NCBI GenBank assembly: GCA_015178975.1
Contig: WHVD01000010.1
Coordinates: 558,001-622,000 of the forward strand
Direction: 5' to 3'
DNA from: Hysterangium stoloniferum
Lineage: Eukaryota; Basidiomycota; Agaricomycetes; Hysterangiales; Hysterangiaceae
DNA: 64,000 bases
Shown: positions 901 through 18,661 of the stretch, piece by piece
Numbering within the stretch: position 1 is the stretch's first letter
Layout: each line of letters opens with the position of its first letter
Notes under the pieces: model-generated
The model's database searches: none
Seen by the model: only the letters and a program-made list of their open reading frames with translations
What the model was told of the DNA's origin: nothing
Translations under genes and position numbers: made by a program

Positions 901-2555
901 TGTTATGACTGTGTCGTAACTGTATCACAGCCCAATGGCCCCCGAGGATAATGTACCATCTGGTTATGCTTTGATACATCCCCTTTCATTATGATGATCT
1001 GTTTTACTCTATGTTTCACATATGCCCATATATACTTGTAGCCTGTGGACTTTTCTCATAATCCTGCTCTCAGCTAAATCACAGCTTCTGATATTATCAT
1101 AACCTTCCAGTTTCTAGTCAAGTCTATTTGTCAAATAGTGTTTCTGCTCTTCCCTTAGTTAGTAGTTTCTAGATGCTGATAACTTGTATATAGACCTGCT
1201 GTGTAGCTACTAGACAATCAGAATATTGACTTAGATACCTCTCTAATCTCCAACTCCATTTTCTGTTCACAACCACCACATTCCGACTCCATCCAATTTA
1301 CGATTCAACCTACATTTATGACTTCAACCTCTAATCTCCGACTCTCAGTCTCCGACTCTCAGTCTCCGACTCTCAGTCTCCGACTCTCAGTCTCCGACTC
1401 TCAGTCTCCGACTCTCAGTCTCCGACTCTCAGTCTCCGACTCTCAGTCTCCGACTCTCAGTCTCCGACTCTCAGTCTCCGACTCTCAGTCTCCGACTCTC
1501 AGTCTCCGACTCTCCGACCCTCAGTCTCCGACTCTCCGACCCTCAGTCTCCGACTCTCCGACCCTCAGTCTCCGACTCTCCGACCCTCAGTCTCCGACTC
1601 TCCGACCCTCAGTCTCCGACTCTCCGACCCTCAGTCTCCGACTCTCCGACCCTCAGTCTCCGACTCTCCGACCCTCAGTCTCCGACTCTCCGACCCTCAG
1701 TCTCCGACTCTCCGACCCTCAGTCTCCGACTCTCCGACCCTCAGTCTCCGACTCTCCGACCCTCAGTCTCCGACTCTCCGACCCTCAGTCTCCGACTCTC
1801 CGACCCTCAGTCTCCGACTCTCCGACCCTCAGTCTCCAACTCTCCGACCCTCAGTCTCCAACTCTCCGACCCTCAGTCTCACTCTCGACCCTCAGTCTCC
1901 GACCCTCAGTCTCCGACCCTCAGTCTCCGACCCTCAGTCTCCGACCCTCAGTCTCCGACCCTCAGTCTCCGACCCTCAGTCTCCGACCCTCAGTCTCCGA
2001 CCCTCAGTCTCTGACCCTCAGTCTCCGACCCTCAGTCTCCGACCCTCAGTCTCCGACCCTCAGTCTCCGACCCTCAGTCTCCGACCCTCAGTCTCCGACC
2101 CTCAGTCTCCGACCCTCAGTCTCCGACCCTCAGTCTCCGACCCTCAGTCTCCGACCCTCAGTCTCCGACCCTCAGTCTCCGACCCTCAGTCTCCGACCCT
2201 CAGTCTCCGACCCTCAGTCTCCGACCCTCAGTCTCCGACCCTCAGTCTCCGACCCTCAGTCTCCGACCCTCAGTCTCCGACCCTCAGTCTCCGACCCTCA
2301 GTCTCCGACCCTCAGTCTCCAACTCTCCAACCCTCAGTCTCCAACTCTCTGACCCCTTGGCCCAACACTTGACTTATCCTTCATTTCCCGATCGGTAGCT
2401 CACTGTGAGGAATTTGATAGGACTAGTTTTTGCCTGCCTGAAATTTAAGGACACCTGATGGTAACTTGTGAGGGCACAGCACATAAGCTGAAGCCAAGTC
2501 CTTCTGTTTGGTCCCTGTTGGCCTACCAACATCAGTCAGTTTTCTGTTCTTAACA
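901..2555 (+). mobile_element. Solo LTR, family 1, expanded by a minisatellite
   Basis: The left end is TGTTATGACTGTGTCG and the right end is TTCTTAACA, matching the ends of the Element I LTRs (start TGTTACGACTGTGTC, end CTTAACA). The 5-bp target duplication GTACT is perfect at 896-900 and 2556-2560. Family members are about 656 bp, but this copy is 1655 bp because about 1 kb of tandem repeat (1340-2345) lies between the promoter region and the conserved 3' motif (2467-2503). The internal region is gone, so this is a recombination product with both LTR ends preserved. Confidence 0.9.
1340..2345 (+). repeat. Three-block minisatellite inside an LTR
   Basis: Three blocks are visible. The first (about 1340-1507) repeats a 14-bp unit GACTCTCAGTCTCC. 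The second (about 1508-1877) repeats a 22-bp composite, GACTCTCC plus GACCCTCAGTCTCC. The third (about 1890-2335) repeats the 14-bp GACCCTCAGTCTCC variant. The unit has no stop codon in this strand, so a long open frame through it is not a gene. Seed units (CTCAGTCTCC, CTCGGTCTCCGA) are present once or twice at the same place in the Element I LTRs near 3420-3465 and 19160-19195. Confidence 0.95.
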
Positions 2556-6590: not shown

Positions 6591-7409
6591 TGTTACGACC
6601 GGACAAATCCTGCCGGACTCCGGGCACTAACTCGTACGCCCCCACGCACTACAAGCACCAATCGTCTGTTTATAGGATTTCCCGCCCGGACTCCGTTACG
6701 TCAAGACTCGTTATGTTCGACCTCATTAAGACACATATCAGTCACCGGACTTCCCCCAGATCCCGTCTCTGTCTATGTCTGTCTTCGTCCCACGCATCAG
6801 CCACCGGAACCCGCTCAGAATCCCGTCACCGCTCTAATCAAGCCCCGTTCCCGTTTTAGTCAAATGACCTGTCATGATTTAGGACTCCGCTCCCGCTCCA
6901 TTTCCCATTATGGGTTATGCTTTGTCACGATTTGGACTCCGCTGCGTTCCGTTCCGTTCCTAACACCAATTTGGTGTTTACTATTCCCGTTTCATGTTTT
7001 GTTAGTTTCGTTTCACCATTACTGGATTTGGTATGTCATTCACTCCATGATCTATATAAACTGGCAGATGTTGTACATACAATCCAGTCAGAAAATTAGC
7101 TTAGATTCCCCCCAGTAATCTAATACATTTTCCTCTCTAAACCCTACTCTTATCAGACCGCTCGCACTAGTCGGAGCCCACGGGCTCTGGCGCATCTATC
7201 TCTCTCGACTATCTCGATTCACAACTCACGACTCACGACCTACGACTCACGACCCACGAACCCCCGCCCGGACTCCCCGGGATTCCCGTCCGCCTGTCTG
7301 AAATTGGACAACACGATCTAGTGAGGGTGCAGCCTATAAGCTGAAGCCAAGTCCTACCGGATATCCCGCGGGTTTCTCCGGAAACCCGGCCTGTGTGTGT
7401 ATCCTAACA
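6591..7409 (+). repeat. Element II 5' LTR (family 2)
   Basis: It starts TGTTACGACCGGAC and ends ATCCTAACA. It contains TATATAA at 7053-7059, the predicted start site at 7086, a small ACGACTC-type tandem repeat near 7215-7260, and the shared motif GTGAGGGTGCAGCCTATAAG at 7320 onward. It is unrelated to family 1 LTRs over most of its length. Confidence 0.92.
7053..7096 (+). promoter_or_regulatory. Element II LTR TATA box and predicted transcript start
   Basis: TATATAA at 7053 is followed 33 nt later by AGTCAGAAAAT (7086-7096), the exact reverse complement of the PBS at 7412-7422. The 3' LTR has the same pair at 14238 and 14271. Confidence 0.8.
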
Positions 7410-7411
7410 GT

Positions 7412-7422
7412 ATTTTCTGACT
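7412..7422 (+). other. Self-priming PBS of Element II
   Basis: ATTTTCTGACT lies 2 nt after the 5' LTR and is complementary over 11 of 11 nt to 7086-7096. The sequence differs from the Element I PBS, but each PBS matches its own LTR start site, so the pairing has co-varied between the families. Confidence 0.85.
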
Positions 7423-8737: not shown

Positions 8738-9887
8738 GCAACCCCGCGGACTCCGCGCGGGTTAGGGGTTGCGTTGCCTCTCCGCGCATTCAAGAGTTCA
8801 CTCACCTCAACGCATCCGCTCTTTCACATTCTGATTCATTTTTCGTTAAACTTATGTCTAATATGATTCCGAAATTCGTTTTTTCAGCTCTCATAGATTC
8901 CGGCTTGACTCATTGTTTTTTAGATACAAAATTCACGCAAAAAAATTCTTTGTCAACTTATTCGATAAATCCCATCGGTCTCTGCCTCTTCGATGGCACA
9001 AGTAATTCGGTTGTTACCCAAGCTTGTGATTTACCCATCAATTTCCCTTGTGGAACATCTCAATTGGTCACTTTCTATGTGACCCAGTTAGACTCAAGTT
9101 GCTCGGTGGTTCTAGGACATAACTGGCTTACCCGCTACAATCCGTTGATTGACTGGATAGCTAACAGTATAACATTCCGGACTCCCGCGGCGACCGAGGA
9201 AACTGCGCCTGTCTCGGCCTCCAAGGCACCCATGGCCTTCCCGGCACCTGCAGTCTCGAGGACTCCTGTGATCCCTACGGCACCTATAGCTTCCCCGGAA
9301 CCCACGGCACCTCTGTCCATTTCCCTGATTAATGCTGCAGCTTTTATTAGGGCTTCAAAAATGGATGGGTCCCAGGCATTCACTATCAACTTAAAAATTG
9401 ATGAAGCAACTGGAGTTTTTCAACCCCAGTATCCGAATCTGAGCAAGCCGCTGACCTAGAAGGCGTCCCGGAGAAATATCATGACTTCGCGGATGTTTTT
9501 AGCAAGCGAAAAGCTGACCGGCTTCCGCCTCATAGAGAATACGACTTAAAAATTGATCTTGAAGATGGCGCCCAGCCACCCCTAGGACATATTTACCCGC
9601 TCTCGTCCACAGAACTATCCGCAATCCGTGATTTCCTGGATGAACATTTGTCCATAGGTTTTATTCGACCCTCAAAGTCTCCTTTTGGAGCACCTGTTTT
9701 GTTTGTCAGAAAAAAGGATGGATCCCTTCGACTATGTGTTGATTTTAGAGGACTCAATGCTGTCACCAAAAAGGACAAATATCCACTCCCACTTATATCT
9801 GACCTGCTCGATGCTCTGCGGAATGCCCGGATTTACACCAAAATAGATCTCAAGCACGCCTATCATTTGGTCCGGATTGCCGAATAC
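8738..9887 (+). pseudogene. Pol of Element II, 5' part: protease and truncated RT
   Basis: The protease motif ALIDSGLTHCFLD lies near 8889-8930, then CSVVLGHNWLTRYN. A one-base loss near 9430 shifts the frame. The RT N-terminal half continues to 9887 with [33 protein letters not shown] and [12 protein letters not shown]. It ends before the YLDD catalytic box because the inverted segment begins at 9888. Element I supplies the aligned continuation ([14 protein letters not shown]), showing what is missing. Confidence 0.85.
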
Positions 9888-10183
9888 TGTTAGGATACAC
9901 ACACAGGCCGGGTTTCCGGAGAAACCCGCGGGATATCCAGTAGGACTTGGCTTCAGCTTATAGGCTGCGCCCTCGCTAGATCGTGTTGTCCAATTTCAGA
10001 CAGGCGGATGGGATCCGGGGGAAGTCCGGTGACTGATATGTGTCTTAATGAGGTCGAACGTAACGAGTCTTGACGTAACGGAGTCCAGGCGGGAAATCCT
10101 ATAAACAGACGATTGGTGCTTGTAGCACGTGGGGGCGTACGAGTTAGTGCCCGGAGTCCGGCAGGATTTCTCCGGTCGTAACA
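9888..10183 (-). repeat. Promoterless 296-bp LTR of the inverted copy
   Basis: Both LTR termini are present (minus strand TGTTACGACCGG to ATCCTAACA), but about 520 bp between a CCGGATCCC and a GGATTCCC-like site are missing compared with 6591-7409. The loss removes the TATA box and start site. Short similarity at the junction suggests a slippage or microhomology deletion. Confidence 0.85.
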
Positions 10184-10333
10184 GTATCCTCCCTTTATGC
10201 CGAAGTCCCAAAGAGGCTCTAGACTTCGATAAGGTTCTTGTCGGCTACGCGCATGTGTCAAAAGTCATGTCGGTTACACGTATGTGTCAAAGAGTCATGT
10301 GATCTGGAAGGTAAGGTTCAAACGCGACGAGCC

Positions 10334-10340
10334 TATATAA
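10334..10340 (+). promoter_or_regulatory. TATA box of the accessory gene
   Basis: TATATAA lies 53-59 nt before the ATG at 10393, the same distance as the TATAAA in the Element I copy. Upstream, a repeated (C/T)ATGTGTCA...GTCATGTG block (about 10250-10302) is also present once upstream of the Element I copy (about 18568-18590). This points to a conserved promoter separate from the LTR. Confidence 0.6.
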
Positions 10341-10392
10341 AAATTTAAAAAATAGAAATTTCTTCTTCTTCATTACCCCCATCTTTGTCACC

Positions 10393-11378
10393 ATGGGACC
10401 AAAACCAACACCACGCAAGCCAATGCCGACAGCAGGGCCCTCCACGGGCACTCCGTATCGGGCGCCGTGGATGGCGGCCCAATTGTTGGCGCGGCAAGAA
10501 GAGCAGCGCCAGCTTCGTGAAGCAGCAGAGAGAGAGGCGAGGGAGGCTGAGGAGGCCCTGGACAGAGAGTACCAGGAAGCATTGGCCGCGGAGGAAGAGG
10601 CCGCAAAGGAGAGGGAACGTGAGGCGGAGGAGGCTGCGTGAGTGGCCGCAGAGAATGCCTGGGTGGCTGCAGAGAAAGCCCGGTTGGCCGCGGAGAGGGC
10701 CGCCATTGTTGCGGGAAAGGTAAGTCCCAAGTTTCAACTTGTCGAGTCTTTTACTGACTTGTAATTTCAGCGCAAAGCGACAGAGGTGGAGTCCGAGTCC
10801 GAGGGGGAGCCGGAGAGCCCCCGAAAGGTAGGCCTCATGTCCATGGGATAACCGGTGAAAACTGACCATATCAACAGAAGGCAAGGAAGGCGGCGCCAGT
10901 CCGACTACCGATGCGGAACGAGCCGCGGTGTTCCGGTTGTAACGACCAGAACACAGAGTGCAATCGAAAGTCCGGCCGGGGTCCGGGGTGTTACCAATGT
11001 GTGCACCTCAAGGCGAGGTGCTCGCTTGTGCACGAGCAGGCCACGGGATCCGGGGCGCGAGACATAAGCGGGACGGACGGGTTGTCCGGGTTGGACGAAG
11101 TCCTTGGATGGATCGCCGAGGGCATCGAGGCCCAAAACGAGTTGCTCTGGAAGAGCAACAAGGTCCAAATTGTGGTGGCAAAGAAGCTGTCCGGACTCTG
11201 TGAGGAGTTTTGGAAGTTCCTGGTGGAGTATGGTGGCTATGTCTATAAAGAGCCGCAAGTCGGGAGTTCCGAGGATGCCGGATCGGATGAGGACGGGGTT
11301 GCCGCAGAGGTCGCGGAGCTCCCAGAGGAGATAGCTGAGGAAGCAGGGAAAAAGAACAGTCCCATAAATGTAGACTGA
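10393..11378 (+). CDS. Retrotransposon antisense accessory protein: coiled coil plus Zn(II)2Cys6 motif
   Basis: Three exons: 10393-10719, 10771-10827 and 10878-11378, with introns of 51 and 50 nt (GTAAGT...TTTCAG, GTAGGC...CAACAG), all phase 0, giving about 294 codons. Exon 1 encodes a Pro-rich start, then a long Glu/Arg/Ala coiled coil. Exon 2 is acidic (SESEGEPES). Exon 3 has a basic KARKAAPVR stretch and six cysteines spaced C-x2-C-x6-C-x9-C-x2-C-x6-C (about residues 146-176), the fungal zinc-cluster spacing, then an acidic tail. One in-frame TGA at 10639-10641 interrupts exon 1, probably a CGA Arg codon by CpG decay. The gene lies opposite to integrase in its parent element. DNA binding is inferred from the motif only. 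No function is known to me. Confidence 0.7.
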
Positions 11379-11584
11379 AAAAGTAGTATAGAATAAAAGT
11401 AATTGAATCATAAAAGTAAAGCGTGAAAGAAAACATAAAAATAAAAGTCAAAGCCAAAGTCCGTGGAGAGTCCGCTTAAAGACTTGACTTGACATGTCAG
11501 AACCTGTGAAAGCAAAGAGAGACATAGGGCGACAGGGAATAGTGAAAATGAGTCCAAACGTAACACGGGGTCCACGGAGTGCGG

Positions 11585-13069
11585 TCAGAGAGACGATAAT
11601 GGTCCAGGTTTGAGTGGGTAAGCAGTATGAAAGTCAGTAACGATTTCCGTGGCATTACCGAGTTCCGTGGCCAAAATCCATGAGGTTTCTTCATCAGTGC
11701 CCTCGTAACCCGCCCACTTGACCAAGTAAAGCAGTTTACAAGTGCGTCGACGCTTGTCAATTTTTGAATCTAAAATCTGCGAGATTTCAAACTCGGGTTC
11801 TCCGTCAATGACGACAGGAGGAGGTGGAGATTGCACACGATCCGGGATAGTGTCAGCAGTACAAGGTTCTAGCATAGAGACATGAAATACTGGGTGTACC
11901 GCGCGCATGCTATCCGGAAGCCGTAGAGTCCAAGAAACTGAACCTACTTGTGCGATAATTTCAAAGGGACCTAAATATTTTTCAGCAAGCTTCTTTGATG
12001 GACGGGTAGTCCGGAAGAATTGAGCTTTGACATAAACACGGTCGCCAATCTTGAAGTTGGGTGGCGGGATCCGGTGTTTGTCCGCTGAATGTTGGTATTG
12101 CTCTTGGGCAGACAATATTGCAGTCCGGAGTTCCTCGTGGAGCTCGTGGAGGTCCGTGGTGAACTCTTGAGCGCGAACAGAGGCGAGATTTTGTTCTGGA
12201 TGTACTGTAATATTTGGATTATATCCTTTATTTGCAAAGAACGGGGAAACGCCAGTAGTGGCTGAAGGTGCATTGTTGTAAGCAAACTCTGCAAGTGGTA
12301 ACAAGGATTTCCAATTGTCCTGTTGGTAGTTGCAATAAACGCGGAGGTATTGTTCCAATGTCTGGTTGACGCGTTCAGTTTGTCCGTCGCCTTCCGGGTG
12401 ATGTCCGGACGTGAAATGTAACGTCATGTCCAAGGATTTTCCGAGGGATCTAAAGAAGTGAGATACGAACTCTGATCCTCTATCGGAAGTCACGTGGGAC
12501 GGAACTCCGTGCTTGGAGAATACGTGGATAATGAAAAGTTCCGCTAGCTGCACGGACGTAATTGTATCATAAGTAGGGATGAATATACCTTGTTTTGAGA
12601 ATCTGTCAACAACGACTAGAATGGCGGAAAAACCTTCAGAATCCGGTAGGTGTTCAATGAAATCCATAGAGATAGAATTCCACGGGTGTTCCAGTACTGG
12701 GAGTTGTTTCAAAAGGCTGTATGGCTTGTGTCGCTGAGATTTCGAGCGGGGACAAGTAGTGCAAGATTTACAATAGTGCTTAACGAATCCACGGAGTCCG
12801 GGCCAAGTGTATTCTCTTCTTATTAATGATAGAGTTTTGTTGTACCCGAAGTGTCCTGAGAGTGGATGATCATGTTTGTATTGAAGGATCCTGAGGTGGA
12901 GGCCGTCGGAGTCCGGTACATAGATACGATCGTCAAGTCTAATGAAACCATGTTGGTCAAGAGACCACCGAGGTTGATCGGGGTCCACGGGATTGTCTAG
13001 ATGAGCTTTAGTAATTGGGTCTAGGGGAATTGCCGATAGAATATCTTGATGTAACTTCTCGATATCCAT
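11585..13069 (-). CDS. Integrase with chromodomain (pol C-terminal part), open frame
   Basis: 494 codons without a stop. Near residues 66-106 is a His/Cys zinc-binding region (HDHPLSGH ... CKSCTTC). The integrase core has D136 (SMDFIEH), D196 (TSDRGSE) and E232 (GDGQTER). A GPY/F module (YLGPFEII) follows near residue 390. The C-terminal chromodomain runs from EFEISQILDSK through LVKWAGYEGTDEETSW. The integrase joins cDNA to target DNA, and chromodomains in Tf1/sushi-type elements steer integration to marked chromatin. The ATG at 13069 is internal to pol: upstream codons continue to about 13187, where a truncated LTR replaces the rest. Confidence 0.85.
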   Translation of the reverse strand: MDIEKLHQDILSAIPLDPITKAHLDNPVDPDQPRWSLDQHGFIRLDDRIYVPDSDGLHLRILQYKHDHPLSGHFGYNKTLSLIRREYTWPGLRGFVKHYCKSCTTCPRSKSQRHKPYSLLKQLPVLEHPWNSISMDFIEHLPDSEGFSAILVVVDRFSKQGIFIPTYDTITSVQLAELFIIHVFSKHGVPSHVTSDRGSEFVSHFFRSLGKSLDMTLHFTSGHHPEGDGQTERVNQTLEQYLRVYCNYQQDNWKSLLPLAEFAYNNAPSATTGVSPFFANKGYNPNITVHPEQNLASVRAQEFTTDLHELHEELRTAILSAQEQYQHSADKHRIPPPNFKIGDRVYVKAQFFRTTRPSKKLAEKYLGPFEIIAQVGSVSWTLRLPDSMRAVHPVFHVSMLEPCTADTIPDRVQSPPPPVVIDGEPEFEISQILDSKIDKRRRTCKLLYLVKWAGYEGTDEETSWILATELGNATEIVTDFHTAYPLKPGPLSSL

Positions 13070-13186: not shown

Positions 13187-13766
13187 CTGGGGAGTCTGGG
13201 TGGGGGTTCGTGGGTCGTGAGTCGTAGGTCGTGAGTCGTGAGTCGTGAATCGAGATAGTCGAGAGAGATAGATGCGCCAGAGCCCGTGGGCTCCGACTAG
13301 TGCGAGCGGTCTGATAAGAGTAGGGTTTAGAGAGGAAAATGTATTAGATTACTGGGGGAATCTAAGCTAATTTTCTGACTGGATTGTATGTACAACATCT
13401 GCCAGTTTATATAGATCATGGAGTGAATGACATACCAAATCCAGTAATGGCAAAATGAAACTAACAAAACATGAAACGGGAATAGTAAACACCAAATTGG
13501 TGTTAAGAACGGAACGGAACGGAGCAGAGTCCGAATCGTGACAAAGCATAACCCATAACGGGAAACAGAGCGGGAGCGGAGTCCTAAATCGTGACAGGTC
13601 ATTTGACTAAAACGGGAATGGGGCTCGATTAGAGCGGTGACGGGATTCTGAGCGGGTTCCGGTGGCTGATGCGTGGGACGAAGACGGACATAGACAGAGA
13701 CGGGATCCGGGGGAAGTCTGGTGACTGATATGTGTCGTAATGAGGTCGAACGTAACGAGTCTTGAC
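13187..13766 (-). repeat. Truncated LTR of the inverted copy
   Basis: It matches family-2 LTR sequence from the GTCAAGACTCG region (109 bp in) to the GACTCCCC(A/G)GGAT region. There it fuses to pol codons GATGACTATGC, which correspond to the post-RNase H segment of Element I (about 15752). It retains TATA and start site (plus strand ATTTTCTGACT at 13371). Confidence 0.85.
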
Positions 13767-14594
13767 GGAGGATACTGTTACGACCGGACAAATCCCGCCG
13801 GACTCCGGGCACTAACTCGTACGCCCCCACGCACTACAAGCACCAATCGTCTGTTTATAGGATTTCCCACCCGGACTCCGTTACGTCAAGACTCATTACG
13901 TTCGACCTCATTAAGACACATATCAGTCACCGGACTTCCCCCGGATCCCGTCTCTGTCTATGTCCGTCTTCGTCCCACACATCAGCCACCGGAACCCGCT
14001 CAGAATCCCGTCACCGCTCTAATCGAGCCCCGTTCCCGTTTTAGTCAAATGACCTGTCACGATTTAGGACTCCGCTCCCGCTCCGTTTCCCATTATGGGT
14101 TATGCTTTGTCACGATTCGGACTCCGCTCCGTTCCATTCCGTTCTTAACACCAATTTGGTGTTTACTATTCCCGTTTCATGTTTTGTTAGTTTCGTTTCG
14201 CCATTACTGGATTTGGTATGTCATTCACTCCATGATCTATATAAACTGGCAGATGTTGTACATACAATCCAGTCAGAAAATTAGCTTAGATTCCCCCCAG
14301 TAATCTAATACATTTTCCTCTCTAAACCCTACTCTTATCAGACCGCTCGCACTAGTCGGAGCCCACGGGCTCCGGCGCATCTATCTCTCTCGACTATCTC
14401 GATTCACGACTCATGACTCACGACCTACGCCTCACGACCCACGAACCCCCGCCCGGACTCCCCGGGATTCCCGTCCGCCTGTCTGAAATTGGACAACACG
14501 ATCTAGTGAGGGCGCAGCCTATAAGCTGAAGCCAAGTCCTACCGGATATCCCGCGGGTTTCTCCAGAAACCCGGCCTGTGTGTGTATCCTAACA
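13767..14594 (+). repeat. Element II polypurine tract and 3' LTR
   Basis: GGAGGATAC (13767-13775) directly precedes TGTTACGACC at 13776. The same purine-rich junction precedes the 3' LTR of Element I (GAGGGGATAC, about 18663-18672) and of the inverted copy. The LTR is 819 bp and ends ATCCTAACA at 14594. Confidence 0.9.
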
Positions 14595-17355: not shown

Positions 17356-17513
17356 TTTTCAACAGTACCCGACGTTTTCCGATCCTCAAACCTCAAGTCA
17401 AACTTGGGTTATCAAGTCTCACTATCCGATGCTTTTCAAGTTCATTTCACGCCAAAAAGAAAAAAGAGAACTAGGTCAATTATTATTTTGTTAACTATCT
17501 AAAGTTTCCCCTA

Positions 17514-18498
17514 CTACTTCTCCTTCCTCCTCAGCCTCCAAAGCTTGCACTTCACCGATGGCCGCCGATATTCTTTTCCCTCCAACTTCCTCCAAAGCTC
17601 TAACCAGCTCAACCTTGTCTGAACTGGGTAGCTCGAGGTCTGCTCGAGCTGCCCCCCGACCCATTGTAGCATGGCTGTTTGCTCCCCGATAGCAACTCCC
17701 AGCAGTCGCATTTGCTCTTGAAAGAGTCCCTGCTGTCGCAGAGACTCAGTTCGCCACCGAGTGGTTTCTGAGAAGTATAACCGCATAAGGTGGTTTTGTT
17801 CCTCCATCGTGTCTGTCTGGCGCTCCCTGTAGGTCACATTTCCGTCGGCCCCCGGGAAGATACAACCGAGTTTTTGACCCACACACTCTTGGCATGTGTG
17901 GCCCCGACCGTTTGCCCGAGGATGGCAAGCTCGATTCCGAGCAGTGCAGCGGTTACACCTTGGATCATTTTTGGGCCCCACCTTGGGGGCCCCCTTTTGT
18001 CTCTATCACTAAAAGTCAGTAAAAGCAAAATATATATATATATATATCAAAAGCACCTTTGGGCTCGAAGGCCCTGCAACTTCATCATCCTCTTCCTCAT
18101 CCTCTTCATCGGAGGCCGACGGCGATACCGCCTTCCGCTGAGAAGAGAACATTAGTGGATATTTGCAGTGCAATGTTTCTCCTGACTTACCTTCCCTTCT
18201 CACCTCTTCCTCACCTCCTCCTCTCGGGCCCAACTGCCTCCTGCTGATTTTTTCTCGCGAGCTCAGCCTCCCGACGCTTGCGTGTAGCCTCCACCTCTGC
18301 TCGTCTCTTCTCCTCTGCCTCAGCCACCTCGATTGCCTTCAACTCCTCCATCTCCTTATGTTCCTCCTCCGAATGTGCCTTCTTCTTCACCTCTAGTTGG
18401 CGACAATGTTCTTGTGCATTCGGCATTCTGCTCGGAACTGACAAGGGGGTTACCTTCAGCCTGACAGGGATGGTCTTCGCCCCAGAGTTCAACGACAT
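17514..18498 (-). pseudogene. Antisense accessory gene of Element I (coiled coil plus Zn(II)2Cys6), frameshifted
   Basis: Minus-strand exons 18498-18191, 18137-18057 and 18002-17514, with introns of 53 and 54 nt. ATG at 18498 follows a TATAAA (18556-18551). Exon 1 has a Glu/Lys/Arg coiled coil (KEMEELKAIEVAEAEEKRR) and one frameshift near its end (308 nt, not a multiple of three). Exon 2 is 27 codons and acidic (SDEEDEEEDDE), aligned with exon 2 of the other copy. Exon 3 gives CNRCTARNRAC...CQECVGQKLGC, spacing C-x2-C-x6-C-x10-C-x2-C-x6-C. It sits between the chromodomain end and the polypurine tract, opposite to pol. The same architecture in two LTR families argues that it was once useful to the element. 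Confidence 0.75.
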
Positions 18499-18550
18499 TG
18501 TGGTTGGAAGGAAAGGAAGAAAAGTCGAGCGCCTTGTAACCCTCCAATTT

Positions 18551-18590
18551 TTTATATGCAAAATTTTTTCCGGTCACATGACGTTCTGAC
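18551..18590 (-). promoter_or_regulatory. Promoter region of the Element I antisense gene
   Basis: The minus strand reads ATGTGTCAGAACGTCATGTG and then, after about 15 nt, TATAAA, 53-58 nt before the ATG. The ATGTGTCA and GTCATGTG words are duplicated upstream of the homologous gene at 10393. Confidence 0.55.
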
Positions 18591-18661
18591 ACATAACCCG
18601 TACCCAACATTGTTTTACGTATACAATCTAGATTTTCGGCCTCCTTGGGATTTCGGCCAAA

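What the first reader, a model, noticed from the sequence alone, without database searches (positions are those of the whole stretch)
10334..11378. Antisense, spliced zinc-cluster gene carried by two Gypsy families
Both Element II (inverted copy, 10393-11378) and Element I (17514-18498) carry, opposite to pol and just before the polypurine tract, a three-exon gene. It has its own TATA box at the same distance from the ATG, an exon of coiled coil, an exon of acidic residues and an exon with perfect Zn(II)2Cys6 cysteine spacing. The spacing, exon phases and upstream words (ATGTGTCA, GTCATGTG) are seen directly; that it binds DNA is inferred. A host-type zinc-cluster protein kept antisense in retrotransposons could regulate the element, its antisense RNA, target choice or host silencing. 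Antisense extra ORFs are known in some plant Gypsy elements, but I know of no fungal element with this architecture.
Basis: partly seen in the sequence, partly recalled or inferred. Interest (0 to 1): 0.9.

Follow-up and report, generated by a model that had tools for sequence, protein, structure and literature searches.

The report
Antisense zinc-cluster gene in fungal retrotransposons
Ty3/Gypsy retrotransposons in a truffle-like fungus carry, on the strand opposite their own genes, a spliced protein gene with six conserved cysteines that selection has preserved, so the elements appear to encode their own accessory, probably regulatory, protein.

Summary
Element II (10393-11378, +) and Element I (18498-17491, -) each carry a three-exon gene antisense to pol, before the polypurine tract, with a TATA box about 60 bp before the ATG. 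Both window copies are broken (in-frame TGA at 10639-10641 in II; two one-base losses in I), but the gene is real. In 47 aligned II sequences splice sites are kept (intron 1 47 of 47; intron 2 46 of 47) while introns drift. dN/dS is 0.19-0.26 for pairs with dS above 0.1, and 0.22 for in-frame copies picked by promoter word. All six cysteines are kept in 47 of 47. Families I and II are homologous by profile (97%, E 2e-11). The upstream word TGTGTCA-N(3-6)-TCATGTGA occurs 707 times genome-wide against 2 for its reversed control. The genome is almost certainly Hysterangium stoloniferum; three protein searches hit only that species. The cluster has Zn2Cys6 spacing but fails the Pfam cut-off, so DNA binding is inferred. 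No RNA evidence was available. Antisense accessory genes are known in plant Gypsy elements and in Botrytis Boty (brtn), so this is a new variant. Best reading: an element-encoded nuclear regulator made from its own antisense promoter.

The parts
10393..10719 (+). exon 1, Glu/Ala/Arg-rich, coiled-coil-like by eye; MGPK start; in-frame TGA at 10639-10641 in this copy
   Evidence: length a multiple of 3 in 41 of 47 aligned sequences
10720..10770 (+). intron 1 (GTAAGT...CAG)
   Evidence: GT...CAG in 47 of 47 aligned sequences, length 48-64
10771..10827 (+). exon 2, 57 nt, acidic, ends in SPxK
   Evidence: 57 nt in 45 of 47
10828..10877 (+). intron 2 (GTAGGC...CAG)
   Evidence: GT in 46 of 47 (one GC), CAG in 47 of 47, length 47-52
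10878..11378 (+). exon 3: basic stretch, six-cysteine cluster (cysteine codons at 10929, 10938, 10959, 10989, 10998, 11019), C-terminal part, stop 11376-11378
10334..10342 (+). TATA box of the antisense gene (TATATAAAA)
   Evidence: TATA to ATG 57-66 bp in the fetched copies in which the script found both
10283..10302 (+). conserved promoter word TGTGTCA-N5-TCATGTGA
10254..10272 (+). second, imperfect copy of the promoter word (2 mismatches)
10184..10201 (-). polypurine-tract region of Element II beside the 3' LTR, whose edge is read as 10183
   Evidence: and reading of the sequence
11585..13069 (-). integrase and chromodomain end of pol, opposite strand, tail to tail with the antisense gene
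   Evidence: Integrase_H2C2, rve, SH3_Tf2-1, Chromo over their cut-offs
18191..18498 (-). Element I antisense gene, exon 1 (308 nt; 309 in several relatives)
18057..18137 (-). Element I exon 2, acidic
17491..18002 (-). Element I exon 3 with the six-cysteine cluster; frame lost near the 3' end in this copy
18550..18559 (-). Element I TATA box (GCATATAAAA)
18574..18593 (-). Element I promoter word TGTGTCAGAACGTCATGTGA

Best explanation
This is an accessory gene that belongs to the retrotransposons themselves. Shown: it lies antisense to pol, in front of the polypurine tract; it has conserved splice sites, a TATA box and a shared promoter word; and comparison of element copies within this genome shows purifying selection on its protein. 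Inferred: host RNA polymerase II transcribes it from its own promoter back into the element, the host splices it, and the protein (coiled coil, basic stretch, six-cysteine cluster) enters the nucleus, probably as a dimer, and acts as a nucleic-acid-binding regulator of the element, perhaps at the conserved word in its own promoter. The antisense placement would explain why introns survive: the sense genomic RNA that is reverse-transcribed carries only the reverse complement of the splice signals.
For: Splice sites kept in 47 of 47 (intron 1) and 46 of 47 (intron 2) while intron length drifts; exon 1 a multiple of 3 in 41 of 47. dN/dS 0.185-0.262 in bins with dS above 0.1, and 0.20 in the true frame of exon 3 against 1.19 and 1.58 in the two other forward frames. 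dN/dS 0.23 (28 pairs) and 0.22 (55 pairs) in in-frame copies taken by the promoter word. 0.24 against 0.40 for the integrase of the same copies. Six cysteines in 47 of 47, a seventh nearby variable. Promoter word 707 times against 2 for the control; 7 of 8 sites with variant spacers precede this gene. Families I and II homologous by profile over the cysteine region. A public gene model, P0003, is joined at the residues expected from the introns of related copies.
Against: No RNA, localisation or binding data. Pfam Zn_clus not reached (best E 0.97 of 6 proteins; not listed for 3 others). PDB profile hits to PPR1 (E 0.92) and LEU3 (1.4) stand behind a RING domain at 0.26, and no zinc-cluster protein appears with the I-type alignment. 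The loop between cysteines 2 and 3 has few basic residues. The promoter word was not found in the LTR copies of the window, so control of the sense promoter is unsupported. The structure model was too poor to use (mean pLDDT 43.5). Plain divergence does not separate the gene from all noncoding parts: the 3' flank (0.086) and an LTR piece (0.097) differ about as little as exons 1 and 3 (0.100, 0.093). Most copies read without protein ranking are decayed: 4 of 25 are in frame, stop-free and keep both introns' splice sites.
Confidence: 0.55

Rival explanations
1. The conserved protein is a zinc-binding accessory factor that does not bind specific DNA: for example a coiled-coil partner of Gag, integrase or chromatin, or an RNA chaperone.
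For: Pfam Zn_clus cut-off not reached; first loop not basic; acidic and coiled-coil-like regions make up much of the protein.
Against: The cysteine spacing is that of Zn2Cys6 clusters, with basic residues just before it; weak PDB profile similarity to PPR1, LEU3 and Pho7, not repeated.
Confidence: 0.3
2. The function lies in the antisense RNA (interference or double-stranded RNA) and the reading frame is incidental.
For: The promoter stretch is conserved (pairwise 0.059) and the 3' flank differs little (0.086); antisense noncoding transcripts are known in other elements (passage).
Against: dN/dS near 0.2, frame-specific constraint and exon lengths in multiples of 3 show that the protein is kept.
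Confidence: 0.05
3. A host gene captured and carried as a passenger, useful to the host rather than to the element.
For: Host-like introns; ordinary Zn_clus genes exist in this genome.
Against: Shared by diverged families at the same place with the same exon plan and promoter word; the constraint is seen between element copies; three protein searches, of limited sensitivity, showed no relative in another species.
Confidence: 0.07
4. Chance or artefact: an open frame and motif-like cysteines in noncoding repeat DNA.
For: Both window copies are broken.
Against: Splice-site and codon-level conservation.
Confidence: 0.01

Closest known systems
brtn of Boty-like Ty3/Gypsy elements, Botrytis cinerea (Zhao et al. 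2011, seen only as a cited title; passages in PMC8365987, PMC7264820, PMC4227169)
   Same: additional antisense gene in a fungal Gypsy element with a CHROMO domain
   Different: the original paper is not held, so its protein, introns and exact position were not seen; the passages mention no zinc cluster and no introns in it; ascomycete host
Antisense genes of plant Gypsy elements: Grande gene23, RIRE2, Retand TRP28 proteins (passages of PMC7264820 and PMC11963269)
   Same: between pol and 3' LTR, antisense; own promoter and nuclear protein (Grande); predicted DNA binding (TRP28)
   Different: TRP28 (PF04195) is a different domain; no introns or zinc found in the two papers by term search; plants; Retand is a non-chromovirus lineage
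Fungal Zn(II)2Cys6 binuclear cluster proteins (PF00172; PPR1, LEU3, Pho7)
   Same: spacing of the six cysteines; coiled coil and acidic parts elsewhere in such proteins (recalled)
   Different: below the Pfam cut-off; basic first loop missing; a short protein inside a retrotransposon
HBZ of HTLV-1 and APH-2 of HTLV-2 (passage in PMC11963269)
   Same: antisense accessory nuclear protein of a retroelement
   Different: no sequence comparison made; animal retroviruses; HBZ is recalled as a bZIP protein, not a zinc cluster

Membership tests
Antisense accessory genes (aORF-3R) of LTR retrotransposons | lies between pol and 3' LTR, opposite strand to gag-pol | tested here: met
Antisense accessory genes (aORF-3R) of LTR retrotransposons | present in many copies, not a single transduction | tested here: met
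   150 places scored in each of two searches; promoter word 707 times
Antisense accessory genes (aORF-3R) of LTR retrotransposons | transcribed, in some cases from its own promoter | not testable with these tools
   TATA box and conserved promoter word only; no RNA data
Zn(II)2Cys6 binuclear cluster (PF00172) | C-x2-C-x6-C-x5-12-C-x2-C-x6-8-C spacing (recalled) | tested here: met
Zn(II)2Cys6 binuclear cluster (PF00172) | reaches the Pfam gathering score (21 bits) | tested here: not met
   9.6 bits for member 1, best E 0.97 among 6 members; not listed at E<=1 for 3 members or for the window's exon 3
Zn(II)2Cys6 binuclear cluster (PF00172) | basic DNA-contacting loop between cysteines 2 and 3 (recalled) | tested here: not met
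   by eye: CNDRNTEC in II; CTARNRAC and CTKRGRTC in I-type copies
Zn(II)2Cys6 binuclear cluster (PF00172) | binuclear zinc fold | tested here: inconclusive
   single-sequence model, mean pLDDT 43.5
Retand TRP28 antisense proteins | TRP28 domain PF04195 | tested here: not met
   not among the Pfam matches listed
Boty brtn | sequence homology to BRTN | not tested
   sequence not available; original paper not held

The most novel reading that the evidence does not exclude
A self-contained regulatory circuit inside a retrotransposon: the antisense zinc-cluster protein is an element-encoded transcription factor that recognises TGTGTCA-N-TCATGTGA in its own promoter, a word present about 700 times in this genome, so that one intact copy could act in trans on many.
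Probability: 0.25. Interest if true: 0.85.

Novelty: new variant of a known kind. Interest (0 to 1): 0.62.

Why it matters
What antisense accessory genes do for LTR retrotransposons is open; the passages on plant elements say that their function is unknown. Here is a fungal case with hundreds of copies, introns that give a clean strand-specific signature for RNA-seq, a defined candidate binding site, and codon-level constraint at least as strong as on the integrase of the same copies (copies ranked by exon 3 similarity, which favours this gene). That makes the question directly testable. It also suggests how a retroelement can keep host-type introns: by holding the gene on the strand that is not the genomic RNA.

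Tried and rejected
Pfam on exon 3 and on aligned proteins: no family at its cut-off. Structure prediction of the window's exon 3 alone: too poor, so no fold search was made. PDB sequence profiles: only weak matches. Intronless copies: three loci picked for long open frames proved to be ordinary copies whose introns happen to stay open; no wider search for processed copies was made. Promoter word in the window with up to 3 mismatches: three matches each, as chance predicts, none in the LTR copies that I read. Papers: the shown parts of the listings held no zinc-cluster antisense gene in a fungal element; a term search of the Laccaria TE paper found nothing.

Sampling. The 46 II copies came from a list ranked by exon 3 protein similarity and, with one exception, show no stop in exon 3 in that list; this favours intactness and low dN/dS, so 31 of 46 intact is no genome-wide rate. 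As a correction I took 20 copies by promoter word, but passed over seven other sites of the same kind, of which four are in the list (three without and one with stops in exon 3), so that sample leans towards decayed copies. Of those 25, 19 keep GT...AG at both introns, 11 have all exons in frame, 5 are also stop-free, and 4 meet all three tests.

Full report
What is there. Element II lies inverted in the window. Its integrase-chromodomain frame is 11585-13069 on the minus strand, and the edge of its 3' LTR is read as 10183, beside the polypurine tract. Between them, on the plus strand, is a three-exon gene: 10393-10719, 10771-10827, 10878-11378, with GTAAGT...CAG and GTAGGC...CAG introns of 51 and 50 nt. 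Element I carries the same plan on the minus strand, 18498-17491, before its own polypurine tract (LTR edge read as 18673).

Which organism. The window sits in contig C2 of a 111-Mb genome of 554 contigs. Two annotated proteins from the first protein search belong to Hysterangium stoloniferum, on contigs of 1976920 and 991917 bases. These are exactly the lengths of C334 and C135. The organism is therefore almost certainly H. stoloniferum, an ectomycorrhizal basidiomycete of the Phallomycetidae (truffle-like habit recalled).

Copies. Searching the genome with exon 3 of II and with a piece of exon 3 of I scored 150 places each, of 1226 and 330 first-look candidates; these are lower bounds. I fetched 46 II copies and 14 I-type copies; a DNA comparison matched all 46 and all 14 to the window gene regions.

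Splicing. Among the 46 II copies plus the window, intron 1 starts with GT and ends with CAG in 47 of 47; intron 2 starts with GT in 46 of 47 (one GC) and ends with CAG in 47 of 47; lengths drift over 48-64 and 47-52. Exon 2 is 57 nt in 45 of 47, and exon 1 is a multiple of three in 41 of 47. A public gene model of this species (P0003) runs through the exon junctions at the residues expected from the related copy L069 for both introns, with the second donor as in the other families; P0002 does so for intron 1. Their own genomic loci were not examined, and whether these models had transcript support is not known; [quoted passage not shown]

Selection. For 31 copies judged intact of the 46 fetched (the window and 15 others dropped), the ratio of mean dN to mean dS is 0.51 (5 pairs, dS below 0.03), 0.375 (88 pairs), 0.262 (127), 0.213 (141) and 0.185 (104 pairs, dS above 0.5). 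In exon 3, over pairs with dS between 0.03 and 1, the true frame gives 0.20 and the other two forward frames 1.19 and 1.58. On the opposite strand two frames give 1.30 and 1.45, and the one whose third positions coincide with those of the gene gives 0.26, with a mean of 3.0 stops per copy. For exon 1 the true frame gives 0.26 and the mirrored opposite frame 0.33 with only 0.10 stops per copy, so exon 1 alone would not decide the strand; exon 3 and the introns do. Plain pairwise divergence is 0.16 and 0.19 in the intron cores, 0.10, 0.05 and 0.09 in the exons, 0.059 in the promoter stretch, but also only 0.086 in the 3' flank and 0.097 in a piece of LTR; so low divergence as such is not special to the exons, and the case rests on the codon pattern. 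With window-anchored columns and decayed copies included, 46 sequences (the window among them; L059 dropped for low integrase coverage) give 0.24 for this gene and 0.40 for the integrase; 22 of the 46 have an integrase frame without an internal stop.

Bias check. Those copies came from a list ranked by protein similarity. I therefore took 20 further copies by the promoter word. The expected start shows in 19 of 20 (17 MGPK, one MAPK, one IGPK), 14 of 20 keep both introns' GT...AG, 7 of 20 have all exons in frame and 3 of 20 are also without a stop, one of them lacking a splice donor. Raw dN/dS with all 20 and the window is 0.36; there exon 3 (0.42) diverges almost as much as the introns (0.43), and four copies no longer align past exon 1. 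The 7 in-frame copies and the window give 0.23 over 28 pairs, range 0.18-0.35, and keep 46 of 48 cluster cysteines. In choosing the 20 I passed over seven sites, four of which are in the list, so the sample leans to decayed copies. Of the 32 exact II-type sites printed for contigs C1-C10 I hold 25: 19 keep both introns, 11 are in frame, 5 of them stop-free, and 4 meet all tests; the 11 in-frame sequences give 0.22 over 55 pairs, range 0.14-0.38. So most copies decay, as old insertions do, but the replicating lineage has kept the protein.

The protein. About 285-303 residues: an N-terminal Pro/Ser stretch, a Glu/Ala/Arg-rich, coiled-coil-like exon 1, an acidic exon 2 ending in SP and K, then a basic stretch, the six-cysteine cluster and a C-terminal part. 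All six cysteines are kept in 47 of 47 sequences, while a seventh nearby is Cys in 9, Arg in 31 and His in 7 (the protein-ranked sample). Elements I and II are only weakly alike by pairwise BLAST (E 5e-4), but a profile comparison of three proteins each gives 97.3% probability and E 2e-11 over 51 columns that span the cluster. With the shared exon plan and promoter this supports common descent.

Is it a Zn2Cys6 protein? The spacing fits. The Pfam model is not reached, whereas 42 places in the same genome match that model over its cut-off, none of them, by eye, at a fetched element copy. A PDB profile search gave PPR1 (E 0.92), LEU3 (1.4) and Pho7 (6.8), behind RING domains of XIAP from 0.26; with I-type proteins none of these appeared. 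The loop between the second and third cysteines has few basic residues. I therefore call it Zn2Cys6-like and treat DNA binding as inference.

The promoter word. TGTGTCA-N(3-6)-TCATGTGA occurs 707 times in the genome (348 and 359 by strand) against 2 for the pattern read backwards. In fetched copies it stands between the polypurine tract and the TATA box, with a spacer of 4 or 5. Of eight sites chosen for variant spacers, seven precede a copy of this gene and one (L080) does not. In the window the exact word occurs only at the two genes, and no sites beyond chance appear with up to 3 mismatches. The II copy carries a second, imperfect word (10254-10272). The half TCATGTGA resembles an E-box (recalled), so a host factor is as possible as the element's own protein.

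How it works. Shown: a protein-coding gene with conserved splice sites, conserved between element copies, shared by diverged families, with a conserved promoter. Inferred: host transcription and splicing, nuclear entry, dimerisation, and regulation of the element. The antisense placement would let introns survive retrotransposition, because the sense genomic RNA carries only the reverse complement of the splice signals.

Known relatives. Antisense genes between pol and the 3' LTR are known in plant Gypsy elements; the Grande protein is nuclear and has its own promoter, and the Retand TRP28 domain is predicted to bind DNA (passages). In fungi, Boty-like elements of Botrytis carry the antisense gene brtn (passages; original not held). 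So the architecture is not new in kind. What I did not find, in the shown parts of the listings, is an intron-containing, zinc-cluster-like antisense gene in a fungal element. Three protein searches in a set that includes nr returned only H. stoloniferum entries at E up to 10; that search needs shared five-residue words and limits protein length, so distant relatives may have been missed.

Noticed in passing
window 1227-2500: Long arrays of 14- and 22-base tandem repeats encoding SPTLSLRLSVSDSQ-like peptides; similar peptides follow the gene remnant in L077, so they may belong to LTRs of related elements.
   Followed up: no
window 13354-14297: Repeat arms in inverted arrangement 116 nt apart, with related copies at 6591-7414 and 9883-10192: nested or rearranged LTRs.
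   Followed up: no
G000, exon 3 matches: Stops inside decayed copies are mostly TGA, which suggests C-to-T decay at CGA codons.
   Followed up: no
II copies L015-L060: Mean synonymous divergence is higher in the antisense gene than in the integrase of the same copies (0.33 against 0.20) and the two correlate weakly (0.28): misalignment, or recombination between elements.
   Followed up: no
II copies, 11380-11555 in window terms: The noncoding stretch between the two convergent genes differs little between intact copies (0.086), less than introns or synonymous sites; it may hold a conserved 3' signal.
   Followed up: no
window 10196-10230 and 18620-18660: The block beside the polypurine tract (about GCCGAARTCCCAARGAGGC) is alike in families I and II.
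   Followed up: no
public proteins BU17DRAFT_80596, 86143, 68404, 68499: Fragments of this transposon gene are annotated as hypothetical proteins of H. stoloniferum.
   Followed up: partly
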